From Alkaliphilus metalliredigens QYMF (GTDB taxonomy: Bacteria; Bacillota; Clostridia; Peptostreptococcales; Natronincolaceae), in NCBI RefSeq assembly GCF_000016985.1, contig NC_009633.1, positions 3,949,539 through 4,013,538 of the forward strand: 64,000 nucleotides of DNA. The letters run 5' to 3'. Of this stretch, positions 9,134-62,041 are shown piece after piece (positions within the stretch are counted from its first letter, which is position 1; every line of letters begins with the position of its first letter). Made by a program: the position numbers and the translations under genes. The notes under the pieces were generated by a model. It worked only from the letters and a program-made list of their open reading frames with translations. It ran no database searches and was not told the DNA's origin.

Positions 9134-9874
9134 ATGAATGTCGTTATGATCGCTGAAGACGAAACCTTAGAACAAGAATTCCTTAAGTCCATTATCGCTG
9201 ATGCATTACACCCAGAAGATTTTTTACTTACCTGCGAGAGTGGAGTGGAAGCTATAGAGTTATCTAAAAAGCACCGCCCTAACATCATCATCATGGATTT
9301 AATGTTGGCAGAATTAGATGGTTTAAGTGCTATTGAAGAAATAAGAAATTTTTTGCCTGAAAGCTGCATAGCTATCATTTCAGCCTATTCCGATTTTTCT
9401 TATGCCCAAAGAGCCATTCGTCTTAATGTCCATGAATATCTATTGAAGCCCATTAAACCCGCTAAAATTAAAAGTATTCTTAACAAAATGCTTGAAACTC
9501 CAAGAGATTGTGACTCCTTTGATAAACCCCCAGCAGTAAATAACGATGAATATAAGCATTTTATCAAAGATTCTATTGCCTATATTAATGAGCATTTTAA
9601 AGAAAAGCTCACGTTAGAAATGGTTGCATCAAAAATCTATATGAATCCCAAGTATTTTAGTCAAACCTTCAAAAAAGAAGTGAGGATTTCTTTTACTGAG
9701 TATGTGGTAAAACTAAGAATGGAATTTGCTTGCAAACTGTTAGCGACCACCAATTATCCAGTTTATCGTATTGCTACCGAATGTGGTTTTTCTGACCCTT
9801 CATATTTTAATCGAGTATTTTGTTCTCATATGGATATGACACCTAAGGCTTACCGCAAAAAAATGAATCAATAG
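9134..9874 (+). CDS. Response regulator, receiver plus AraC-type DNA-binding domain
   Basis: This 246-residue protein has a receiver domain (residues 1-120) with acidic pocket EDE, phospho-acceptor Asp in IIMDLMLAELDG and the conserved Lys in LLKPIKP. An AraC/YesN-type double helix-turn-helix follows (about 140-245), ending with the signature GFSDPSYFNRVF...TPKAYRK. It is the partner of the upstream kinase, 2 bases away. In type I cut loci a two-component pair of this sort activates the compartment genes; here that role is inferred from position. The gene may be translated by coupling to the kinase through a GGAGG site inside the kinase's last codons. Confidence 0.9.
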   Translation: MNVVMIAEDETLEQEFLKSIIADALHPEDFLLTCESGVEAIELSKKHRPNIIIMDLMLAELDGLSAIEEIRNFLPESCIAIISAYSDFSYAQRAIRLNVHEYLLKPIKPAKIKSILNKMLETPRDCDSFDKPPAVNNDEYKHFIKDSIAYINEHFKEKLTLEMVASKIYMNPKYFSQTFKKEVRISFTEYVVKLRMEFACKLLATTNYPVYRIATECGFSDPSYFNRVFCSHMDMTPKAYRKKMNQ

Positions 9875-9970
9875 TTTCAATTCCCTGCTCTTTGTTTCGA
9901 TTTTATGACGTTCCCTTGCTTTCACGTAGTTATAATACGCGAAATAGTACAACCCCTCTAAAGGCAAAAC

Positions 9971-9994
9971 TCCCCTAAACGCTCCTTTAGGGGA
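9971..9994. terminator. Short hairpin after the two-component genes
   Basis: TCCCCTAAA and TTTAGGGGA form a perfect 9-bp stem with a 6-base loop. On the minus strand it is followed by GTTTTGCCTT, and on the plus strand by A/T-rich sequence without a clean T run. It lies between two convergent units and could end transcription from either side. Confidence 0.5.
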
Positions 9995-10042
9995 ATATAT
10001 AATGAATTTATATATTTAATCTTCTAAACCACTGATATCAAC

Positions 10043-10204
10043 CTATTTCTTCTGTATCAACACCACACACTCCATGTTGGTTTTGATAGAAAGATGATGA
10101 TTTTTCCCAAAATAAATAAAGAATCCTCCTGGGGAATATTCAAATTCTTTCCCACTATAATCCGTACTCTTTCCACAATATGGGATTAACACTTGTTGAG
10201 CCAC
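10043..10204 (-). CDS. Small ORF after the AraC-GyrI gene, unknown
   Basis: This possible 53-residue ORF starts at a GTG that lies 3 bases after the upstream stop codon, with no strong ribosome site. The reading frame stays open further upstream inside the AraC gene. The product contains VLIPYCGKSTDYSGKEF, GGFFIYFGKNHH and ends NMECVVLIQKK. Its composition looks like a real protein segment. It may be a small coupled gene or the tail of something lost. I recognise no family. Confidence 0.4.
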   Translation of the reverse strand: MAQQVLIPYCGKSTDYSGKEFEYSPGGFFIYFGKNHHLSIKTNMECVVLIQKK

Positions 10205-10206
10205 TC

Positions 10207-11082
10207 TCAAACAATCGGTATATAAATCTCTACTAGACGTTTGTCTCCCTGTTCTTCCACTTTAGGGTAATGTTCAAGAGAAAATCTGTCATCAGGTTTA
10301 TGACCACTTGTGGGAAGCCATTTGCCATACATATAATACCAGGCTTTGTCGTATTCACTTGGTTCTACCATAAAACTTCCAACAGCATACTGCCCTTCAT
10401 GAAGATTTAGAATACCAATATCTCCACTTACTGCAAGGTTCCTATCGACAGACATACAGACACTAAGCCGTAACTGATCTTCATCTGTTTCGTTCCCAAA
10501 ATCATGATAGATAACGAACCATCTTGAGGTTGATGAGATTAACCTCCTTTGATCTGCCCATTGATAAAGCTTCTGAAACAAATTAGAAAAAAGTTCACTG
10601 TCTCTCTTGTATGGTCCTGTATATCTGGTATAAATCAGCTTGATTGCCTTCTCTCTTCGTATCTCAATTTTCAGAGGATCTATTGTCATATCCTGATTAT
10701 CTAAGTACTTATTAACAAAATCAGTCTCGCTTACAGTACCATTTGTTTTTCGGTAACTACTACTGCAGACTCCATACTTAGATTTGAAGGCTTTTGCAAA
10801 AGAGGTCTGATTAGAAAATCCTACACTCATGGCAATGTCTATAATAGGTCGGTCTTTATCAAACAAAAGTATATGGGCTGCCTTTTCCAATCGTATCCTC
10901 TTAATGAATCCATATAAACTTTCTCCTGTCATAGAACCATATATTCTTTGAAAATGATACTCGCTAAAATTGGCTCTTTGAGATAAACGTTTTACTGTAA
11001 GGGATTCATCTAGGTGGTTTTCTATATAATCTTGTACTTTATTGATTTGTTCAACATAAGTATTCTTATTGTTTGCATTCAT
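10207..11082 (-). CDS. AraC-type regulator with GyrI-like effector-binding domain
   Basis: This is a 291-residue regulator. Residues 10-110 form an AraC double helix-turn-helix (VKRLSQRANFSEYHFQRIY, then GFSNQTSFAKAFK). Residues 130-291 form a GyrI-like small-molecule domain (the motif RYTGPY, and EIYIPIV at the end). Proteins of this layout (Rob/BmrR-like) bind amphipathic drugs or metabolites and activate export or defence genes. Its ATG overlaps the stop codon of the UvrA-like gene (11079-11082), so it is translationally coupled and probably regulates this operon. Confidence 0.9.
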   Translation of the reverse strand: MNANNKNTYVEQINKVQDYIENHLDESLTVKRLSQRANFSEYHFQRIYGSMTGESLYGFIKRIRLEKAAHILLFDKDRPIIDIAMSVGFSNQTSFAKAFKSKYGVCSSSYRKTNGTVSETDFVNKYLDNQDMTIDPLKIEIRREKAIKLIYTRYTGPYKRDSELFSNLFQKLYQWADQRRLISSTSRWFVIYHDFGNETDEDQLRLSVCMSVDRNLAVSGDIGILNLHEGQYAVGSFMVEPSEYDKAWYYMYGKWLPTSGHKPDDRFSLEHYPKVEEQGDKRLVEIYIPIV

Positions 11083-54870: not shown

Positions 54871-54910
54871 ATCTGCATAAAAATAACCCAAGAAGGGTTT
54901 CATTATCCAT

Positions 54911-55011
54911 TCTCATCTCCCAGAACTATGTTCTGCTGGATTTAGCACCGTCACATATGTGTGGTTGCTGAAACATCATCGGGCCAGTCCCTCAGTTTCT
55001 CTTGATAAGTT
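54911..55011 (-). ncRNA. SAM-I (S-box) riboswitch
   Basis: Read on the minus strand, the S-box core is complete: CTTATCAAGAG, GAGGGACTGGCCC, GATGTTTCAGCAACC, GGTGCTAAATCC, then GATGAGA at the closing strand. SAM binding is expected to favour the downstream terminator and switch off metN-metI-metQ-larA. The consensus is strong enough for the call without other evidence. Confidence 0.97.
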
Positions 55012-55027
55012 ATATTTAGTTTTTATA

Positions 55028-55566
55028 TTAGATATGATTATATAGTGTATAAAATGTTTTGTCAACAATAAAATTAATTTCCTTCTTTTCTTTTGATTCA
55101 TTTTGTAACGTCCATGCTTCTACCTTAAATTGATTTTTTATTATCTGCCTTAATTCATCATCTGATATATTCTTCTTTTTTTCCTTGATTTCTAAGCACT
55201 CATCATTATTATTCTTTTTGTTAAATTTAATAAATAATTCAATAGCTATATCATTGTCTTTAGCAAATATTTTAAGTACATATTCCTTATCTATTATTTT
55301 GGGGGTTACTGAATATTCCCTATAACTACTCCATCTATAGTCTTTTATATTTCTTATAATTCCTGCTTTTATAGGATTTTGATGAATGTATCTTATAACC
55401 GTCAAAAAATATGATTCTGTCTCTACGGGTTCACTTTTAAATCGATCTTGAAATAAAGTTCCTACCCGTTCATACTTCTTGTTATACCAATATACATAGC
55501 TTCCACTTATACGTCTCATTATTTGTTCTAATGGTTCTTTTCCTTCTTTTAACAATAGATGTATGT
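55028..55566 (-). pseudogene. Y1 transposase copy truncated at both ends
   Basis: This 180-codon segment is nearly identical to the copy at 48497-49258 (SGSYVYWYNKKYERVG, RYIHQNPIKAG, RWSSYREY). It begins abruptly at IHLLLK, with the match ending at 55566 at ACATAC next to unrelated DNA, and ends within KEKKE, before the helix-turn-helix. Its cut 3' end lies 17 bases from the SAM riboswitch. It cannot be active because the first His of the HUH motif is lost. Confidence 0.85.
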
Positions 55567-55719
55567 CACTAGTGTTCAATTAATGGATTTTAAATCCATT
55601 GACAATACTTCGTATCCAGTACTTTCATAATTTGACTTAAATTTAGACATGAAAATAGTCAGTAACCTTTGCTTTAATATAATTACACACTAACCATATT
55701 TGCAAGGGGGTACTGACTA

Positions 55720-55845
55720 TTGGTTAATGATAATTATATCACTATTTTCGAAAAATTATTAGACATCATTGATTGGAAAAAATTGAAAGAATCTACTTAT
55801 CTACTAGTGCTTAGTAACCTCCTTCTTTGGGGAAGATATGTGTAA
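55720..55845 (+). CDS. Small ORF with strong ribosome site, unknown
   Basis: A TTG start 10 bases after CAAGGGGG opens a 41-residue ORF, VNDNYITIFEKLLDIIDWKK, then LLVLSNLLLWGRYV. It could be a small protein, a leader peptide, or the first codons of a truncated transposase. It ends just before the chimeric transposase gene. I recognise no family. Confidence 0.35.
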   Translation: MVNDNYITIFEKLLDIIDWKKLKESTYLLVLSNLLLWGRYV

Positions 55846-55873
55846 ACTAATCCCAAAGAAATGGAGGAACATC

Positions 55874-57303
55874 ATGAAAAAGAAATATATCGTAAAACTG
55901 ACCAATGAAGAACATCAAGAACTAACAGATATAATAAGTAAAGGTAAATCACCGGCATATAAAATCAAACATGCAAACATTCTTCTCAAGGCCAATACAG
56001 ACGGACCAAACTGGATTGATAGACAAATTGCAGAAGCGTTTAATTGCCATAGCAATACGATAACAAATGTCAAAAAACGCTTCGTAGAAGAAGGTCTTGA
56101 TAGTGCTCTTGACCGAAAAAAGAGAGATCCTTCTACTTTGCCTAGAAAATTTGATGGTGTAGATCAAGCTAAAATAATAGCTCTTGCCTGCAGCACACCA
56201 CTGGCTGATCATTCTCACTGGACATTGAGGTTACTCGCTAATAAAGTTGTTGAATTAAATATAGTTGATTCTATTTCACATCAAACAGTTTCCAGGATTC
56301 TAAAAAAAATGACTTGAAGCCTCACCAAAGTAAGTATTGGATGATACCCCCTGAACAAGATGCTGCCTTCGTATGCGCTATGGAAGATGTCCTTGATTTA
56401 TACCAGAGACCCTATGATAGTAATAAGCCTGTAGTTTGTATGGATGAACAGCCTATACAACTTATTAGGGAAACTCGTACCCCTCTCCCCTTAGAACCTG
56501 GGAAACCTGAACGACACGATTATGAATACGAAAGAAATGGTACAGCAAATGCTTTTATGTTTACAGAGCCTTTGGGTTGTAATCGTTCTGTTCATATCAC
56601 AGAGACAAGTGCAAAGGAAATATTTGAAGTAGAAAAACTTAAAGCCCTAGCAGATAAAGGTTATTACAATGCACAGGATTTAAAAAAATGCGAAAAAGAA
56701 GGTATTACAACCTATGTTTCAAAACAAGTATTTCCCAATACTACAGGAGAGGAATAATATTATTTAGACAAATTTGAATATGATAAAGAGGAAAATATTT
56801 ATATATGTCCTAAAGGAGAAAAACTTTATTGTAGAAGACAAAAACCTATAAATGAAAATACAAAAGAAATAGTATATCAAAATTTCAAAGCCTGTAGTAA
56901 ATGTAATTTTAAAGATCAATGTACAAAAGATAAAAGAGGCAGACGAGTAAGAAGACCAATAGATCAAGATATCTTAGATAGAGTAGACCAGAGGATGATA
57001 GAAAACAAAGAACTCTATAAGCAAAGACAAATGATCGTAGAGCACCCCTTTGGAACGATAAAAAGAGGGCTAGGCATGACGTATTTTCTGACAAAAGGGA
57101 TGCAATCAGCAAAAACGGAGATTTCTTTTGCCTTTTTAGCCTATAATATGAAACGAGCACTAAATATACTGGGAATAAAGGCAATAATGAGGAGACTAAC
57201 AGACAAAAAAGCATTTGTTAGCCTCCGATTTTGTAAATATTATCGTATACTTAAAAACATTTGCCAATTTAACATGAAATCCATGAAAAGTGCAATGGAA
57301 TAA
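55874..57303 (+). pseudogene. Chimeric transposase: IS630 N-terminal part joined to IS1182 C-terminal part
   Basis: Residues from MKKKYIVKLTNEEHQELTDI to about FMFTEPLGCNRSVHITE are an IS630-type protein: helix-turn-helix and the first catalytic Asp in VVCMDEQPIQL, with an internal frame change at 56311-56316. From TSAKEIFEVEKLKALADKGY onward it is an IS1182-type C-terminus (LADKGYYNAQDL, KACSKCNFKDQC, VEHPFGTIKRGLG with the catalytic Glu/His region), interrupted by one TAA at 56757. Neither half is complete, so this is a recombination product and is probably inactive. A GGAGG site precedes the start. Confidence 0.8.
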
Positions 57304-57410: not shown

Positions 57411-58265
57411 TTAATAATATGATACTACATATTCTGATTTTAAGTTGTTTACAATGCTATTTTTTACACTTATATAATTTTGCGCAAAATATAAATTTTT
57501 AAAATGTTCAAGGTTATTATCTAAACTAAGAATATCGTTTATCAATATAACATGCATATCTCCGGAATCCATGACATGATAGACATCACCTACTGAATAT
57601 GTATTAATATTATTAGTAGTATGCATATCTGTTATTTCGCTATAATCATGATCGGAATCTAAATTTGTATGCATGTGATTTATGATACTATCCATTGATG
57701 TTGTGTAACTAATAAAAAATTCTATGTTGAATTGATCTTCAACTTCATGTATCTCTTTACCCTCTTTAAGCATAGTTTCAACGTCAACGGCATGATGATG
57801 ATCAGTTGTTTCATAGACATATATTTCATATAGTCTTATGTCAGGATCGCCATAGTGGTTCATCAAAAAACTTTGTATCTGTGAGACATTTATATCATCT
57901 TGTTTATAAATTTGATATACATTATATACCTCAATTAGTTTTTGTCTACCTATTTCACTATTTATAGTGTATCCTTCAAATGCAGGAAATAGTTCGCTTA
58001 ATTCATGTAAATCCTCGTCAGTAGGTGCTTGAATATTTCGATTTTCGCTTTCCAATTGTATTAGATAATCGCCTACTTTCTGGTTAATGATTGCCACTTT
58101 GTAATTATCATTAAGAATACTGTTTAATTGGTTTTTCGTCAAAACAGTCTCATTTTCTACCTTAAATACTGGTTCATCTTTGACAACATTATAAATAAGA
58201 AAGGCATTTGTAAATAGACTTAGTGCCAATATGGCGTAAACAATTTTATCTAATATTTTTTTCAT
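57411..58265 (-). CDS. Membrane-anchored PrsA/SurA-like foldase with His-rich region
   Basis: This 284-residue protein has one N-terminal hydrophobic anchor (residues 8-27) and then an extracytoplasmic body. Residues 35-130 resemble the SurA/PrsA N-terminal chaperone domain, and 135-260 resemble a degenerate parvulin (PpiC) domain (RLYEIYVYET, VGDVYHVMD). The parvulin part is rich in His and Asp (TTDHHHAVD, NHMHTNLDSDHDY, DMHTTNN), which suggests metal binding; that is inference. It lies 107 bases after a secreted Cys-rich protein and probably folds or protects it. It may be expressed by read-through of the hairpin between them. Confidence 0.7.
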   Translation of the reverse strand: MKKILDKIVYAILALSLFTNAFLIYNVVKDEPVFKVENETVLTKNQLNSILNDNYKVAIINQKVGDYLIQLESENRNIQAPTDEDLHELSELFPAFEGYTINSEIGRQKLIEVYNVYQIYKQDDINVSQIQSFLMNHYGDPDIRLYEIYVYETTDHHHAVDVETMLKEGKEIHEVEDQFNIEFFISYTTSMDSIINHMHTNLDSDHDYSEITDMHTTNNINTYSVGDVYHVMDSGDMHVILINDILSLDNNLEHFKNLYFAQNYISVKNSIVNNLKSEYVVSYY

Positions 58266-58307
58266 CCTAGTTCACCCTCCTCTGCCAATATTATTTCATT
58301 TTTAAAA

Positions 58308-58354
58308 TATGTCCGTCTATCACTCCACTAAACATCGAATAATAGACGGACATA
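58308..58354 (-). terminator. Intercistronic hairpin between secreted protein and foldase genes
   Basis: TATGTCCGTCTAT and ATAGACGGACATA form a perfect 13-bp stem with a 21-base loop 18 bases past the stop codon of the upstream gene. A short T run follows on the minus strand. The large loop suggests a partial terminator or an mRNA-processing/stability element that sets the ratio of the two products. Confidence 0.6.
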
Positions 58355-58372
58355 AATTATTGAGAGTATGAT

Positions 58373-59188
58373 TTAATTTCCAGTATACGTTGTATGCATA
58401 TGAAAACGACCATAATGTCCTATTAGCCCCGAACAACTGGCTTGTTTTGATTGAGGAGAAGCAGCACAGAATGGATTAGAAGTATAATCTGCTAGGCAGT
58501 TACTATAAGAACCCAGTGCCCAGTCGCAGTCGCTTGCAAAGAAATTCAAAATTGCACTTGGTGAAGCTTGGTTTGAATAGTAAGTACCATTACCTAAGTA
58601 GCCGTTAAATCTGTTGCAATGTAACCGATATCCATATACACCTTGCTCACCATTAGACCAATATGGATCCGTTGGACTGGCATTGATTGTAAAATCGGAT
58701 TTTTCAAGATTTTCCATACTTTTATTGTCAACAGAGATCATATAACTGATATCAACATCAAATATTACTGTAGCCTCTGTGGTATCACCGCTGATAAGCT
58801 GTGCATAGCTTTCATTGGTCACAGGGTCATAAACTTTAACTTCTAGACTCTTATTTGTTTGAGTCAGTACTTTTGCTTGACCATGGCTGTCCAATTCAAT
58901 ATCGGCACCATCAATTGTTACCTCGATATCTGTATAAGTTACTAGACGTTCAAACCGCTGTTCAGCACTATTATAGAACCAGCCAGTAGCAACAGCAGCC
59001 TCAATGGCCTGTTCTAAAAGTTCACTATCATCACCATCTAATTCTGGCATTTCAATAATTTGTCTAAACTTAACGTCAAGAGTTTTTTCGTCTAGTGTCG
59101 GACTACCCGCATTTGCAACCAAAGCAAAACCAGTAATCATAAGAGTCATAGCAATAAATACGCTTAAGATTTTTTTAGACCTATTCAT
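58373..59188 (-). CDS. Secreted Cys-rich protein with pro-region, unknown family
   Basis: This 271-residue exported protein has a clear signal peptide (NRSKKILSVFIAMTLMITGF, cleavage near ANA-GS). Residues about 30-185 form an acidic pro-region or beta domain without cysteine. The last 90 residues hold all five Cys (HCNRFNG, SDCDWA, SNCLAD, PFCAAS, ASCSGL) and are rich in Gly, Asn, Ser and Tyr, ending GHYGRFHMHTTYTGN. The layout resembles a bacteriocin-like or surface peptide made as a larger precursor, but I recognise no family. A BlaI-type operator core lies upstream, a foldase gene lies downstream and BlaR1/BlaI genes precede it. Confidence 0.7.
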   Translation of the reverse strand: MNRSKKILSVFIAMTLMITGFALVANAGSPTLDEKTLDVKFRQIIEMPELDGDDSELLEQAIEAAVATGWFYNSAEQRFERLVTYTDIEVTIDGADIELDSHGQAKVLTQTNKSLEVKVYDPVTNESYAQLISGDTTEATVIFDVDISYMISVDNKSMENLEKSDFTINASPTDPYWSNGEQGVYGYRLHCNRFNGYLGNGTYYSNQASPSAILNFFASDCDWALGSYSNCLADYTSNPFCAASPQSKQASCSGLIGHYGRFHMHTTYTGN

Positions 59189-59351
59189 AAAATAAAACCT
59201 CCCATTTTTATAATTTTATCATTCTTTACCACCGAAATTAATTTTGCCTCCTTTTAACATTATTTCACGAAAATAGATATTGGTGGCTACAGTGAATCTA
59301 TTATCACCCATGCAGGCTACTTATTATTGACAGAGGTAACCTGCTATGGGG

Positions 59352-59361
59352 TATCGTGATT
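59352..59361. promoter_or_regulatory. Putative BlaI-type operator upstream of the secreted protein
   Basis: TATCGTGATT matches 9 of 10 bases of the core TATCGTGATA that occurs twice in the palindrome at the blaI promoter. It lies 164 bases upstream of the secreted-protein ATG. The rest of the 310-base gap (59189-59498) is leader sequence with a GGGAGG ribosome site before the ATG; no consensus promoter stands out, though TATATTAT near 59377 is a weak -10 candidate. Confidence 0.5.
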
Positions 59362-59498
59362 TGAGTTTAATAATATATGTTTAAAGCACTAAGATGTGTT
59401 CTTTATCAGCAGATTGGTCTTATTATGAATACTACTTGTTGTGCTTTGACAATCTAGATACAATACAAATCTTTTTAGTAGTATTTTTATTGAGATAG

Positions 59499-60869
59499 CT
59501 ATTGTATTTTTCTTAAAGTAATCCAAACAAATTGATTGTCATAATTACTATAGATAAATTCAGCAACAACTTCCATTTCACGATCATAGTATATATGCTT
59601 CATCAAACGTTGTTCACCATCTTCTGTCTTTTGTAAATAGGCATCACCCAGCAAGTTACTTACCTCATCTATCGTGGATATGCTTTGATTGTTATTTACA
59701 TTTATTACTACCTCTGAATTAAAAGCAAAAATATAATTGACATAACCGTCCTCAATATCTAATACCAATTCACTAAAATAGTAAGTATAGTCACCTTCTC
59801 TATTTATAAAGCGATTACTCTCTTGATATATTGATAAGTCAATCTCTCCAATATTAGAGCCAATTCCTATCCTATCAACAGTAATATTGGACAAATCGGT
59901 TGTTTCAAGGCCTTCTATTTCCCATTCACTATGCTGATTTTCAACAAATCTAAATAGCGAATCGAAAGAAGGATTGAATATCAATAACAATATAATCGTA
60001 AAAAGAATTATGCTAATCACTACAATACCAATAGTAGTATTTTTCTTTTTATTTAACACATTTTTAACCCGCTTTCTCGTATTGCTTTCTCCAAGAGCAA
60101 GCATTGACCTTGTAATTTTTATTGGGGTTTTGCTAAAATTGTAAATAGTTTGAGCATATTCTTTTCGAACGCTGCTCCCTAAAGTCGCTACTACTTTTTC
60201 ATCGCAGCTCATTTCAATATCATTACTCAAATATTTAAATGCCATCCAGACAAATGGATTAAACCAGTGAATTGCCAGTACAAAGTATGCAAAGAATTTG
60301 ATCAGATAATCCTTTCTTTTAATATGAATTTGCTCATGGCAAAGTACATATTTAAATTCGTTTTTAGTTATGCCCAAGGGTACATATACTTTAGGATTGA
60401 GCAGTCCGAAAATGAGAGGAGTAGTAATCTGATCTGTTTCAAAAACATTATCTTGTATTTTTATGGCAGTCATCAGTCTTTTCCTGGCTTTATTGTATGC
60501 GATAGCCTCATTTAGCAGAATTCCAGCAAACCCTATAAACCAAACAACAAATAAAAATATCAACATAAACGTTAAAAATGGGTTGTTTACTGATAAAGTT
60601 TCGGCACCAGATAAACTCCTGCCAATGGAATAGGGAATATATTCTGGTCGGGTAAAAATATTGTTGATTCCATAACCTCTAAAAAAATTTAAAACACCTG
60701 TGAAGTTGATGGAAAAAGGAATAATAAGTTGAAACCATACAATCCCCCATAAAATATACGAATACTTTTTAGGAACAGTCCTTAAAAAGAATCTTCCAAT
60801 TAAAGCTAAAATAATTAAATAGCTGCCTGCAATGCTCATATTTAAAATTGATATAAATATGTATTGCAT
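59499..60869 (-). CDS. BlaR1/MecR1-type M56 membrane peptidase and signal sensor
   Basis: This protein of about 456 residues has N-terminal membrane segments, the zinc-protease motif HEQIH (HExxH) in CHEQIHIKRKD near residue 180, the downstream SNDIEMSCDE with the third metal ligand Glu, a further membrane segment (IGIVVISIILFTIILLLIF) and an external C-terminal domain of about 130 residues. That domain is not the penicillin-binding domain of classical BlaR1: I see no SxxK-type motif. It probably senses another signal and triggers cleavage of BlaI. The ATG at 60869 has a GGAGGAG site; the open frame begins at 60896 inside blaI. Confidence 0.85.
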   Translation of the reverse strand: MQYIFISILNMSIAGSYLIILALIGRFFLRTVPKKYSYILWGIVWFQLIIPFSINFTGVLNFFRGYGINNIFTRPEYIPYSIGRSLSGAETLSVNNPFLTFMLIFLFVVWFIGFAGILLNEAIAYNKARKRLMTAIKIQDNVFETDQITTPLIFGLLNPKVYVPLGITKNEFKYVLCHEQIHIKRKDYLIKFFAYFVLAIHWFNPFVWMAFKYLSNDIEMSCDEKVVATLGSSVRKEYAQTIYNFSKTPIKITRSMLALGESNTRKRVKNVLNKKKNTTIGIVVISIILFTIILLLIFNPSFDSLFRFVENQHSEWEIEGLETTDLSNITVDRIGIGSNIGEIDLSIYQESNRFINREGDYTYYFSELVLDIEDGYVNYIFAFNSEVVINVNNNQSISTIDEVSNLLGDAYLQKTEDGEQRLMKHIYYDREMEVVAEFIYSNYDNQFVWITLRKIQ

Positions 60870-60873
60870 TGCA

Positions 60874-61248
60874 TCACTCCTCCTTGTATTCGTCAATCAA
60901 GTTTTTAATTTTATTGACTTCTTCTTTGGATAATTTTTTGTCTTTTAAAAATGCAGTAATAAAGCTAGGCAAAGATCCCCCAAAAGTTCGCTCAATCATG
61001 GAATTGCTCTCATATTGATAAACGTCTTCTTTGGTAACTAAAGTAGTCACAATAGAATTGTTATTTTGCATGATCCCTCTTTCACATAGCTTTCTTAAAA
61101 CTGTGTAGGTCGTGGTTCTTTTCCACCCCAATTGCTGTTCACAAATATTCGCCAATTTTCTTGATTGAATCGGTTCGTTATCCCAAACAATACAGGTAAA
61201 TCGATATTCTGCATCAAATAATTTTAAATTTTTGCTCATTATAGCCAC
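60874..61248 (-). CDS. BlaI/MecI-type repressor
   Basis: This 124-residue protein has the BlaI/MecI winged helix (residues 10-75; FTCIVWDNEPIQSRKLANIC and TTTYTVLRKLCERGIM) and a C-terminal dimerisation part with FLKDKKLSKEEVNKIKNLID. BlaI proteins repress by binding dyads and are inactivated by proteolysis through BlaR1. Its stop codon is close to and upstream of the BlaR1 start, so the two form an operon. Its promoter overlaps a large palindrome. Confidence 0.93.
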   Translation of the reverse strand: MAIMSKNLKLFDAEYRFTCIVWDNEPIQSRKLANICEQQLGWKRTTTYTVLRKLCERGIMQNNNSIVTTLVTKEDVYQYESNSMIERTFGGSLPSFITAFLKDKKLSKEEVNKIKNLIDEYKEE

Positions 61249-61257
61249 TCCTTACTT

Positions 61258-61311
61258 CTGTTTATCGTGATAGACTACGGTCAGTCTATCACGATAAACA
61301 GATATTGTCAA
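61258..61311 (-). promoter_or_regulatory. blaI-blaR1 promoter and double operator
   Basis: On the minus strand TTGACA (61311-61306) and TAGACT (61288-61283) are 17 bases apart. A perfect inverted repeat of 19-bp arms (CTGTTTATCGTGATAGACT, 61258-61276 and 61283-61301) with a 6-base centre covers the spacer, the -10 box and the start region. Each arm contains the small dyad TATC-GT-GATA, so two repressor dimers could bind side by side, as for BlaI/MecI. This fits strong autorepression. Confidence 0.85.
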
Positions 61312-61443: not shown

Positions 61444-62041
61444 TCATACTTTTAAAACTATATTTCTACTTATCCCCGTAAGCCTTGCTATTTGTCTTGT
61501 TGATAGGCCCTGCTCTTTTATTGTTTTTAAATATTTATCCCGATTATCTTTTTCTAATTTTTGAATGTCTGTACAATGAATTATATTACATGTATTTTTA
61601 ATGATCTCTACTGCTTCATTATCTTTAATTCGCCTTTTTTCACTAATATCTAAACATTCATTACTACTTTCTTCTTCATGGAATTTTTTAAATTCTTCTA
61701 TGGCTTTTTCCTATCAGCATTAAATTCATCTAATATAAAATCAATGTCTACAATTTTTTCTTTTACTATATACTCAGTATAACTGCTCCAGTTATACCAA
61801 TATACATAGCTTGCTCCTATACGTCTCATTGTTATGCCTAAATCTTCTTTTTCTTCTTTCATAAGTATATGAATGTGATTTCCCATCAAACAATAGGCAT
61901 ATATCTTATATTCACCTTTATCTTTATACTCTAACAGTGTATGTAAATACTTTTTACTATCTTCTTCATCCTCAAAAATTATTTGCTTATTGATCCCTCT
62001 TATAACAATACGATAAATTCCCGTTTCACTGTTCTTGACAT
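61444..62041 (-). pseudogene. Y1 transposase with internal deletion and frameshift
   Basis: From 62041 the frame reads MSRTVK, shifts by one base near 62010, then IYRIVIRGINKQIIFEDEED, KIYAYCLMGNHIHILMKEEK, GASYVYWYN joined directly to WSSYTEYIVKEKIV (about 45 codons lost), and after a further break ends with the helix-turn-helix GLSTRQIARLTGISRNIV. The HUH motif is intact. It lies within a group II intron remnant. A GGGGACGG block at 61391-61402 marks its 3' end. Confidence 0.75.

What the first reader, a model, noticed from the sequence alone, without database searches (positions are those of the whole stretch)
57411..61311. BlaI/BlaR1-controlled secreted Cys-rich protein with a dedicated foldase
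Four minus-strand genes form one neighbourhood: BlaI repressor, a BlaR1-like protease whose external domain lacks a penicillin-binding motif, a signal-peptide protein with five Cys only in its last 90 residues, and a PrsA/SurA-like foldase rich in His. The core TATCGTGATA in the blaI promoter palindrome recurs (9/10) upstream of the secreted protein. The family knowledge is that BlaR1 cleaves BlaI on sensing an external ligand. The inference is an inducible secreted effector, possibly a bacteriocin-like or stress-response protein, with its own folding helper.
Basis: partly seen in the sequence, partly recalled or inferred. Interest (0 to 1): 0.78.

Follow-up and report, generated by a model that had tools for sequence, protein, structure and literature searches.

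The report
BlaR1 with immunity-like toxin sensor
A four-gene cluster encodes an undescribed family of secreted, probably antibacterial, cysteine-rich proteins with its own folding helper and a BlaR1-type switch whose outside part is related to the small membrane proteins that sit beside (and probably protect against) the same secreted protein in other bacteria, so the switch may sense the cell's own weapon rather than penicillin.

Summary
The four genes are real: BlaI, BlaR1 (M56), a secreted 271-aa protein with five Cys at its C-terminus, and a PrsA-like foldase. The BlaI promoter palindrome is perfect and conserved in a relative; the second "site" upstream of the secreted gene is not.

The secreted protein matches nothing in Pfam, NCBIfam or PDB but belongs to an unnamed, rare Bacillota family (motif HCNRFNG...SDCD...C...C...CS...YHxH; 32 loci besides the window).

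The key find: BlaR1's external domain is not penicillin-binding. It is homologous to stand-alone membrane-anchored proteins encoded right after secreted protein + foldase in two other genera (one found by a blind search), to orphan copies in genomes or on a plasmid without the secreted gene, and to the tail of a LytTR-linked DUF3021 membrane protein. Best reading: an immunity-type domain reused as sensor, so the secreted protein (self or foreign) is BlaR1's inducer. Antibacterial activity, immunity and binding are inferred, not shown; a metal-handling role remains a rival.

The parts
60874..61239 (-). BlaI/MecI/CopY-type repressor, 121 aa
   Evidence: Pfam Penicillinase_R E 3.5e-19; NCBIfam BlaI_of_BCL 1.7e-14 and CopY_TcrY 4e-12, both below cut-off
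59499..60869 (-). BlaR1-type M56 membrane metalloprotease, 456 aa, starts 4 nt after the BlaI stop
   Evidence: Pfam Peptidase_M56 E 6e-45, residues 8-270; HEQIH; 465-aa homologue in L024
59499..59960 (-). External sensor domain of BlaR1 (153 aa); homologous to stand-alone membrane-anchored immunity-like proteins
   Evidence: BLASTP to L029 lipoprotein E 1e-24 in an ORF set, to L112 E 9e-17, L114/L115 ~3e-13, L056 DUF3021 tail 2e-15, Sarcina plasmid protein 6e-31
58373..59188 (-). Secreted CNRFNG-family protein, 271 aa: signal peptide, beta-rich N-domain (res. 32-150), Cys-rich C-domain
   Evidence: family of 32 further loci; AF2 N-domain pLDDT 84-96
58376..58657 (-). C-terminal Cys-rich domain (HCNRFNG...SDCD...YHxH), putative mature effector
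   Evidence: 14 invariant columns over 25 members; no PDB match; fold not predicted with confidence
57411..58265 (-). TM-anchored PrsA/SurA-like foldase with degenerate parvulin region, 284 aa
   Evidence: family in 9 of 10 subfamily-1 loci; best PDB profile hit PrsA 4wo7 E 0.03; L030 member SurA_N_3 27.9 bits vs cut-off 27.2
61258..61301 (.). BlaI operator: perfect palindrome CTGTTTATCGTGATAGAC-8-GTCTATCACGATAAACAG overlapping the blaI promoter (-35 TTGACA starts at 61311)
   Evidence: same layout in L024
59352..59361 (+). 9/10 match to the operator core; probably chance
   Evidence: not conserved in L024, 2.6% chance in shuffles; 7 vs 4.5 expected in window
59307..59350 (-). Hairpin upstream of the secreted gene; a hairpin of unrelated sequence lies at the same place in L024
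   Evidence: RNA fold -21.3 kcal/mol, L024 -19.1 (no shuffle control run)

Best explanation
The cluster makes and controls a secreted, disulfide-rich, probably antibacterial protein of an undescribed family. The Sec-exported precursor is folded outside the membrane with the help of the dedicated PrsA-like foldase and is probably cut after its N-domain to release the C-terminal HCNRFNG domain. BlaI holds the palindromic promoter shut. BlaR1 carries, in place of a penicillin-binding domain, a domain homologous to the membrane-anchored proteins that accompany the same secreted protein elsewhere and that probably protect the producer. When the secreted protein binds this domain, BlaR1's M56 protease is activated, BlaI is cleaved and the cluster is switched on: immunity-type domain and receptor in one protein, responding to self or to a competitor's version. 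Shown by sequence: the gene family, the foldase linkage, the sensor-domain homology and linkage, the conserved BlaI operator. Inferred: antibacterial activity, immunity, binding as signal, proteolytic maturation, regulation of the secreted gene by BlaI.
For: Sensor domain vs lipoprotein next to CNRFNG + foldase in Gottfriedia (L029): 35% over 136 aa, E 1e-24. A blind search of 169 Paenibacillaceae genomes with the sensor profile gave 5 hits, one of which lies directly behind a new CNRFNG gene and foldase (L112: A2 E 1e-38, A3 E 4.5e-32, A8 E 1e-25). In the 25 CNRFNG genomes the sensor profile hits only at the CNRFNG locus in two (L024, L029) and one remote BlaR1. Three orphan membrane-anchored copies lie in genomes with no CNRFNG gene and one on a Sarcina plasmid, as orphan immunity genes do. 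The same domain is the tail of a DUF3021 membrane protein behind a LytTR regulator (L056), the layout of LytTR regulatory systems, some of which control bacteriocin genes (PMC6193735). CNRFNG genes lie next to small outward-facing anchored proteins far more often than other genes, next to S8 proteases and LytTR two-component systems (L112, L047), and occur on plasmids and in viral contigs.
Against: No member is known to kill anything; the C-domain fold is unknown. BlaI/BlaR1 accompany the family in only 2 loci. The domain also occurs in a Paenibacillus BlaR1 (L075) that is not next to a CNRFNG gene, so it may have other ligands. A wider profile (A6) reaches a broad set of secreted lipoproteins in unrelated contexts, so the more remote A4-A5 link (hhalign 92%) may be only superfamily-level. 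No BlaI site upstream of the secreted gene is conserved. No separate immunity gene or S8 protease is present in the window, so immunity would have to come from BlaR1 itself. Copper genes follow one homologue (L039).
Confidence: 0.5

Rival explanations
1. Non-lethal secreted factor (signal, adhesin or envelope-stress protein): BlaR1 senses its unfolded or unprocessed form as quality control, and the anchored proteins are partners rather than immunity proteins.
For: N-domain looks weakly like CnaB/transthyretin-type beta domains (Foldseek, all E > 1e-3); no toxin family match; foldase linkage fits quality control.
Against: Patchy, rare, mobile distribution (only the own genome clearly positive among 394 of the order) and orphan partner genes without the secreted gene suit toxin-immunity better.
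Confidence: 0.2
2. The sensor domain is a generic secreted-lipoprotein fold that BlaR1 proteins use for an unrelated ligand (e.g. cell-wall fragments); its link with CNRFNG genes is accidental.
For: Same domain in an unlinked Paenibacillus BlaR1; broad superfamily.
Against: Window and L024 domains are closer to the CNRFNG-linked lipoprotein (35-38%, E ~1e-27) than to the unlinked BlaR1 (22%, E ~2e-5); linkage recurs in four loci of distinct lineages, one found blind.
Confidence: 0.15
3. Metal-handling system: the CNRFNG C-domain (conserved Cys and His) binds copper or another metal, the His/Met-rich foldase helps load it, and the BlaI/CopY-type repressor answers metal or envelope stress.
For: CopC and CopD genes follow the CNRFNG gene in L039 (CopC E 3.5e-19, CopD E 1.4e-16; the CopC frame opens 4 nt after the CNRFNG stop); the Priestia foldase carries about 12 repeats of DEHTSHDMEGMNM; conserved His190, Cys and YHxH in the family; BlaI also resembles CopY at 4e-12.
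Against: Copper genes at only 1 of about 32 loci; most other foldases are not His/Met-rich (5-7 His in most); does not explain the varied membrane-anchored neighbours, the orphans or the plasmid/prophage placement.
Confidence: 0.13

Closest known systems
BlaI-BlaR1 / MecI-MecR1 (M56) regulatory pairs
   Same: repressor plus membrane M56 protease with external C-terminal sensor; palindromic operator over the repressor's own promoter
   Different: sensor is not a class-D-like penicillin-binding domain but a 153-aa immunity-like domain; target is a secreted-protein cluster, not a beta-lactamase
SdpABC-SdpRI / YitPOM-YitQ (Bacillus subtilis secreted toxins)
   Same: secreted toxin made from a precursor, membrane protein giving protection, own repressor (PMC6818787)
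   Different: no sequence relation found; here sensing would go through an M56 protease with an external domain
RsiV-SigV lysozyme receptor
   Same: membrane regulator that binds an antibacterial protein directly as its signal (PMC4183432)
   Different: anti-sigma factor cut by signal peptidase; here BlaI cleavage by M56 is expected, and the ligand would be the cell's own product or a competitor's version
LytTR regulatory systems (HdrRM/BrsRM)
   Same: membrane switch plus regulator, some controlling bacteriocin genes; one DUF3021 membrane protein behind a LytTR regulator carries the same external domain (L056)
   Different: different transducer; signal unknown in LRS (PMC6193735)
PrsA/SurA foldases
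   Same: SurA-type N-domain, parvulin-like middle part, membrane anchoring outside the cell
   Different: TM anchor instead of lipid, parvulin region degenerate, dedicated to one secreted protein

Membership tests
BlaI/MecI-BlaR1/MecR1 pair | BlaI-type winged-helix repressor | tested here: met
   Pfam PF03965 E 3.5e-19
BlaI/MecI-BlaR1/MecR1 pair | M56 membrane protease with HExxH | tested here: met
   PF05569 E 6e-45; HEQIH
BlaI/MecI-BlaR1/MecR1 pair | external penicillin-binding sensor | tested here: not met
   no SxxK/KTG, no Pfam match, homologous to another domain family; NCBIfam BlaR1 models below cut-off. So: BlaR1-like M56, not a beta-lactam sensor
BlaI/MecI-BlaR1/MecR1 pair | dyad operator over the repressor promoter | tested here: met
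   61258-61301, conserved in L024; binding itself not tested
PrsA/SurA foldase | SurA-type N-domain | tested here: inconclusive
   L030 member just above cut-off, others below, window member none; PrsA best PDB hit E 0.03
PrsA/SurA foldase | parvulin PPIase domain | tested here: not met
   no Rotamase family match in any member scanned; similarity only by alignment to PrsA
Bacteriocin / toxin-immunity system | secreted protein, adjacent small membrane-anchored partner, orphan partners | tested here: met
Bacteriocin / toxin-immunity system | antibacterial activity and protection | not testable with these tools
   needs experiment
SdpC-type toxin family | sequence match to a curated toxin model | tested here: not met
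   no NCBIfam/Pfam toxin match for 25 members

The most novel reading that the evidence does not exclude
A toxin-immunity domain has been moved onto at least two unrelated signalling membrane proteins (M56 BlaR1 protease and a DUF3021 LytTR-linked protein), so that the immunity module serves as receptor for the toxin and drives its own regulon; some BlaI/BlaR1 pairs without penicillin-binding sensors would then be toxin sensors.
Probability: 0.4. Interest if true: 0.8.

Novelty: new variant of a known kind. Interest (0 to 1): 0.62.

Why it matters
BlaI/BlaR1 pairs are read as beta-lactam sensors by default, yet M56 proteins without a penicillin-binding part exist and their ligands are unknown (for instance on the pCD6-like plasmids of C. 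difficile, PMC6807378). Here the external domain comes with a testable ligand: the secreted protein encoded beside it. It also uncovers an unnamed family of secreted Cys-rich proteins across Bacillota with foldase, subtilisin and partner genes, and suggests a route by which immunity proteins become receptors.

Tried and rejected
Exact-pattern scan with the single protein found no relatives in genome contigs; the order and phylum searches found only the own-genome copy and one remote phylum member as real relatives. Phage collection: no match. AF2 of the whole protein: N-domain good, C-domain poor; of the C-domain alone: pLDDT 54.6, no use for fold search. Foldseek of the N-domain: only weak CnaB-like matches. 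Rfam: only a SAM riboswitch elsewhere. Operator search over the genome: 10 exact core matches, no clear enrichment over the reversed control (5+5 vs 3+3), none of the distant ones extends to the full arm, so no wider BlaI regulon was seen. The second BlaI site was rejected. The wide sensor profile A6 was dropped as too broad. PDB profile search with the sensor family: nothing credible. Literature: no description of this family or of a BlaR1 with such a sensor found in the held library.
Full report
Observation. The four minus-strand genes are present as described. BlaI (60874-61239) and the M56 protein (59499-60869) are 4 nt apart; the secreted gene starts 310 nt after blaR1 and the foldase gene 107 nt after the secreted gene. 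The five Cys of the secreted protein are residues 191, 221, 231, 241 and 252. The blaI palindrome is a perfect 18-8-18 repeat at 61258-61301 that overlaps the promoter and is kept, with changes, at the same place in the relative L024. The 9/10 copy at 59352 is not kept there and is within reach of chance.

The secreted protein. No Pfam, NCBIfam, PHROG or PDB family covers it. Distant searches gave a plasmid copy in Priestia megaterium (28.5% over 97%, E 7e-22), one in Lactobacillus helsingborgensis, a broken second copy in the same genome split by an in-frame TAG, 25 further loci in Bacillota, two viral contigs, one remote phylum member and one found later in Paenibacillaceae. All but the remote one share HCNRFNG (ACNRFNG in Priestia), nearly all share SDC(D) and further conserved Cys, and most end in YHxH. 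The C-domain fold could not be predicted; the N-domain is a confident beta-rich domain.

Subfamilies and neighbours. In the window's subfamily (window, L017, L024, L025, L026, L027, L029, L030, L031, L112) a foldase gene is beside the secreted gene, or separated from it only by the S8 gene, in nine of ten; L024 has none, the L026 foldase frame is interrupted and L031 is cut by the contig end. Five of the ten also have a small membrane-anchored S8 subtilisin whose gene overlaps the foldase gene by a few to about 20 nt. None of the other loci searched has the foldase, and BlaI/BlaR1 occur only in the window and L024. Other loci have LytTR response regulators and GHKL kinases next to the gene (L112, L047) or a LytTR regulator nearby (L027). 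Eighteen of 31 CNRFNG genes (a list that includes the window) have a small protein with one N-terminal membrane anchor as immediate neighbour, against 43 of 342 other genes in the same loci (crude ORF calling and hydropathy rule; a stricter count of 14 still gives Fisher 3e-5). These partners belong to several families (DUF5412, DUF5301, PF22374, unnamed).

The foldase. Family members match PrsA best among solved structures (4wo7, E 0.03; 6vj4, E 0.55), and one passes the SurA_N_3 cut-off; no parvulin family match exists. So 'PrsA-like' is likely, PPIase activity doubtful.

The sensor. The 153-aa external domain of BlaR1 lacks penicillin-binding motifs. It is 62% identical to that of L024, 35% (E 1e-24 in the ORF set) to a lipoprotein that follows secreted gene and foldase in Gottfriedia (L029; the secreted gene there is frameshifted), and homologous to a DUF3021 protein behind a LytTR regulator (L056, E ~1e-15) and to a Paenibacillus BlaR1 (L075). 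As an independent test, a profile of these five was run on 169 Paenibacillaceae-type genomes (family of G415; names are not given by the tool): five hits. One lies directly behind a new CNRFNG gene and foldase gene (L112), three are orphan anchored proteins (L113-L115) in genomes where a C-domain search finds nothing, and one is the L075 BlaR1. A further orphan is on a Sarcina plasmid (35%, E 6e-31). This pattern (partner beside the secreted gene, orphans elsewhere, fusions to two different transducers) is what a toxin-immunity domain reused as a receptor would give.

Mechanism. From known BlaR1 biology (PMC7593790) ligand binding outside activates the M56 domain, which removes BlaI. I infer that the ligand is the secreted protein. 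Direct sensing of an antibacterial protein by a membrane regulator is known for RsiV and lysozyme (PMC4183432), and toxin/protector/repressor sets are known for SdpABC-RI (PMC6818787). Whether the BlaR1 domain also protects the cell is open; no other immunity candidate is in the window cluster.

Caveats. The sensor family blends into a broad set of secreted lipoproteins when the profile is widened, so only the close relatives carry weight. One homologue is followed by copC-copD, and the Priestia foldase has a long His/Met repeat, so a metal role is kept as a rival. Nothing here shows killing, binding or induction. All E-values from the small local sets are for those sets only. That the genome is Alkaliphilus metalliredigens is only a recollection from its size (4,929,566 bases) and was not tested.

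Noticed in passing
L019 8881-10222 (G000:C1:666880-668221): Second CNRFNG copy in the same genome is broken: the N-domain has lost its normal start and an in-frame TAG separates it from the C-domain; a GHKL-kinase fragment lies upstream and an intact 157-aa anchored protein (PF22374, homologue of PDB 4q0y) downstream.
   Followed up: partly
L017 4933-6237: The Priestia megaterium pBM700 foldase carries about 12 near-perfect copies of the 13-residue His/Met-rich unit DEHTSHDMEGMNM, reminiscent of metal-binding repeats.
   Followed up: no
L056 6468-8081: LytTR regulator followed by a DUF3021 membrane protein with an external domain related to the window BlaR1 sensor; a membrane-anchored S8 protease (9658-10575) and a CPBP protease are nearby.
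   Followed up: partly
L039 9521-12214: On plasmid pGIAK2 a CNRFNG gene is followed directly by CopC and CopD genes.
   Followed up: partly
window 55028-57303 and 61698-61889: IS200-like and DDE transposase remnants flank the cluster, which suggests a mobile history.
   Followed up: partly
window 54910-55011: SAM riboswitch (RF00162, 87 bits) in front of a methionine-type ABC transporter operon.
   Followed up: no
window 59307-59350 and L024 about 9800-9870: Strong hairpins of unrelated sequence at the same place upstream of the secreted gene in both genomes.
   Followed up: no
L120 2163-4127 (C. difficile pCd18_5): Small plasmid with BlaI, a 327-aa M56 protein with hardly any external domain and a secreted peptidoglycan-binding-domain protein: another BlaI/M56 pair next to a secreted protein.
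   Followed up: no
L036 7876-8352: Near the Staphylococcus massiliensis CNRFNG gene lies a 158-aa protein that looks by eye like a secreted bacteriocin of another kind.
   Followed up: no
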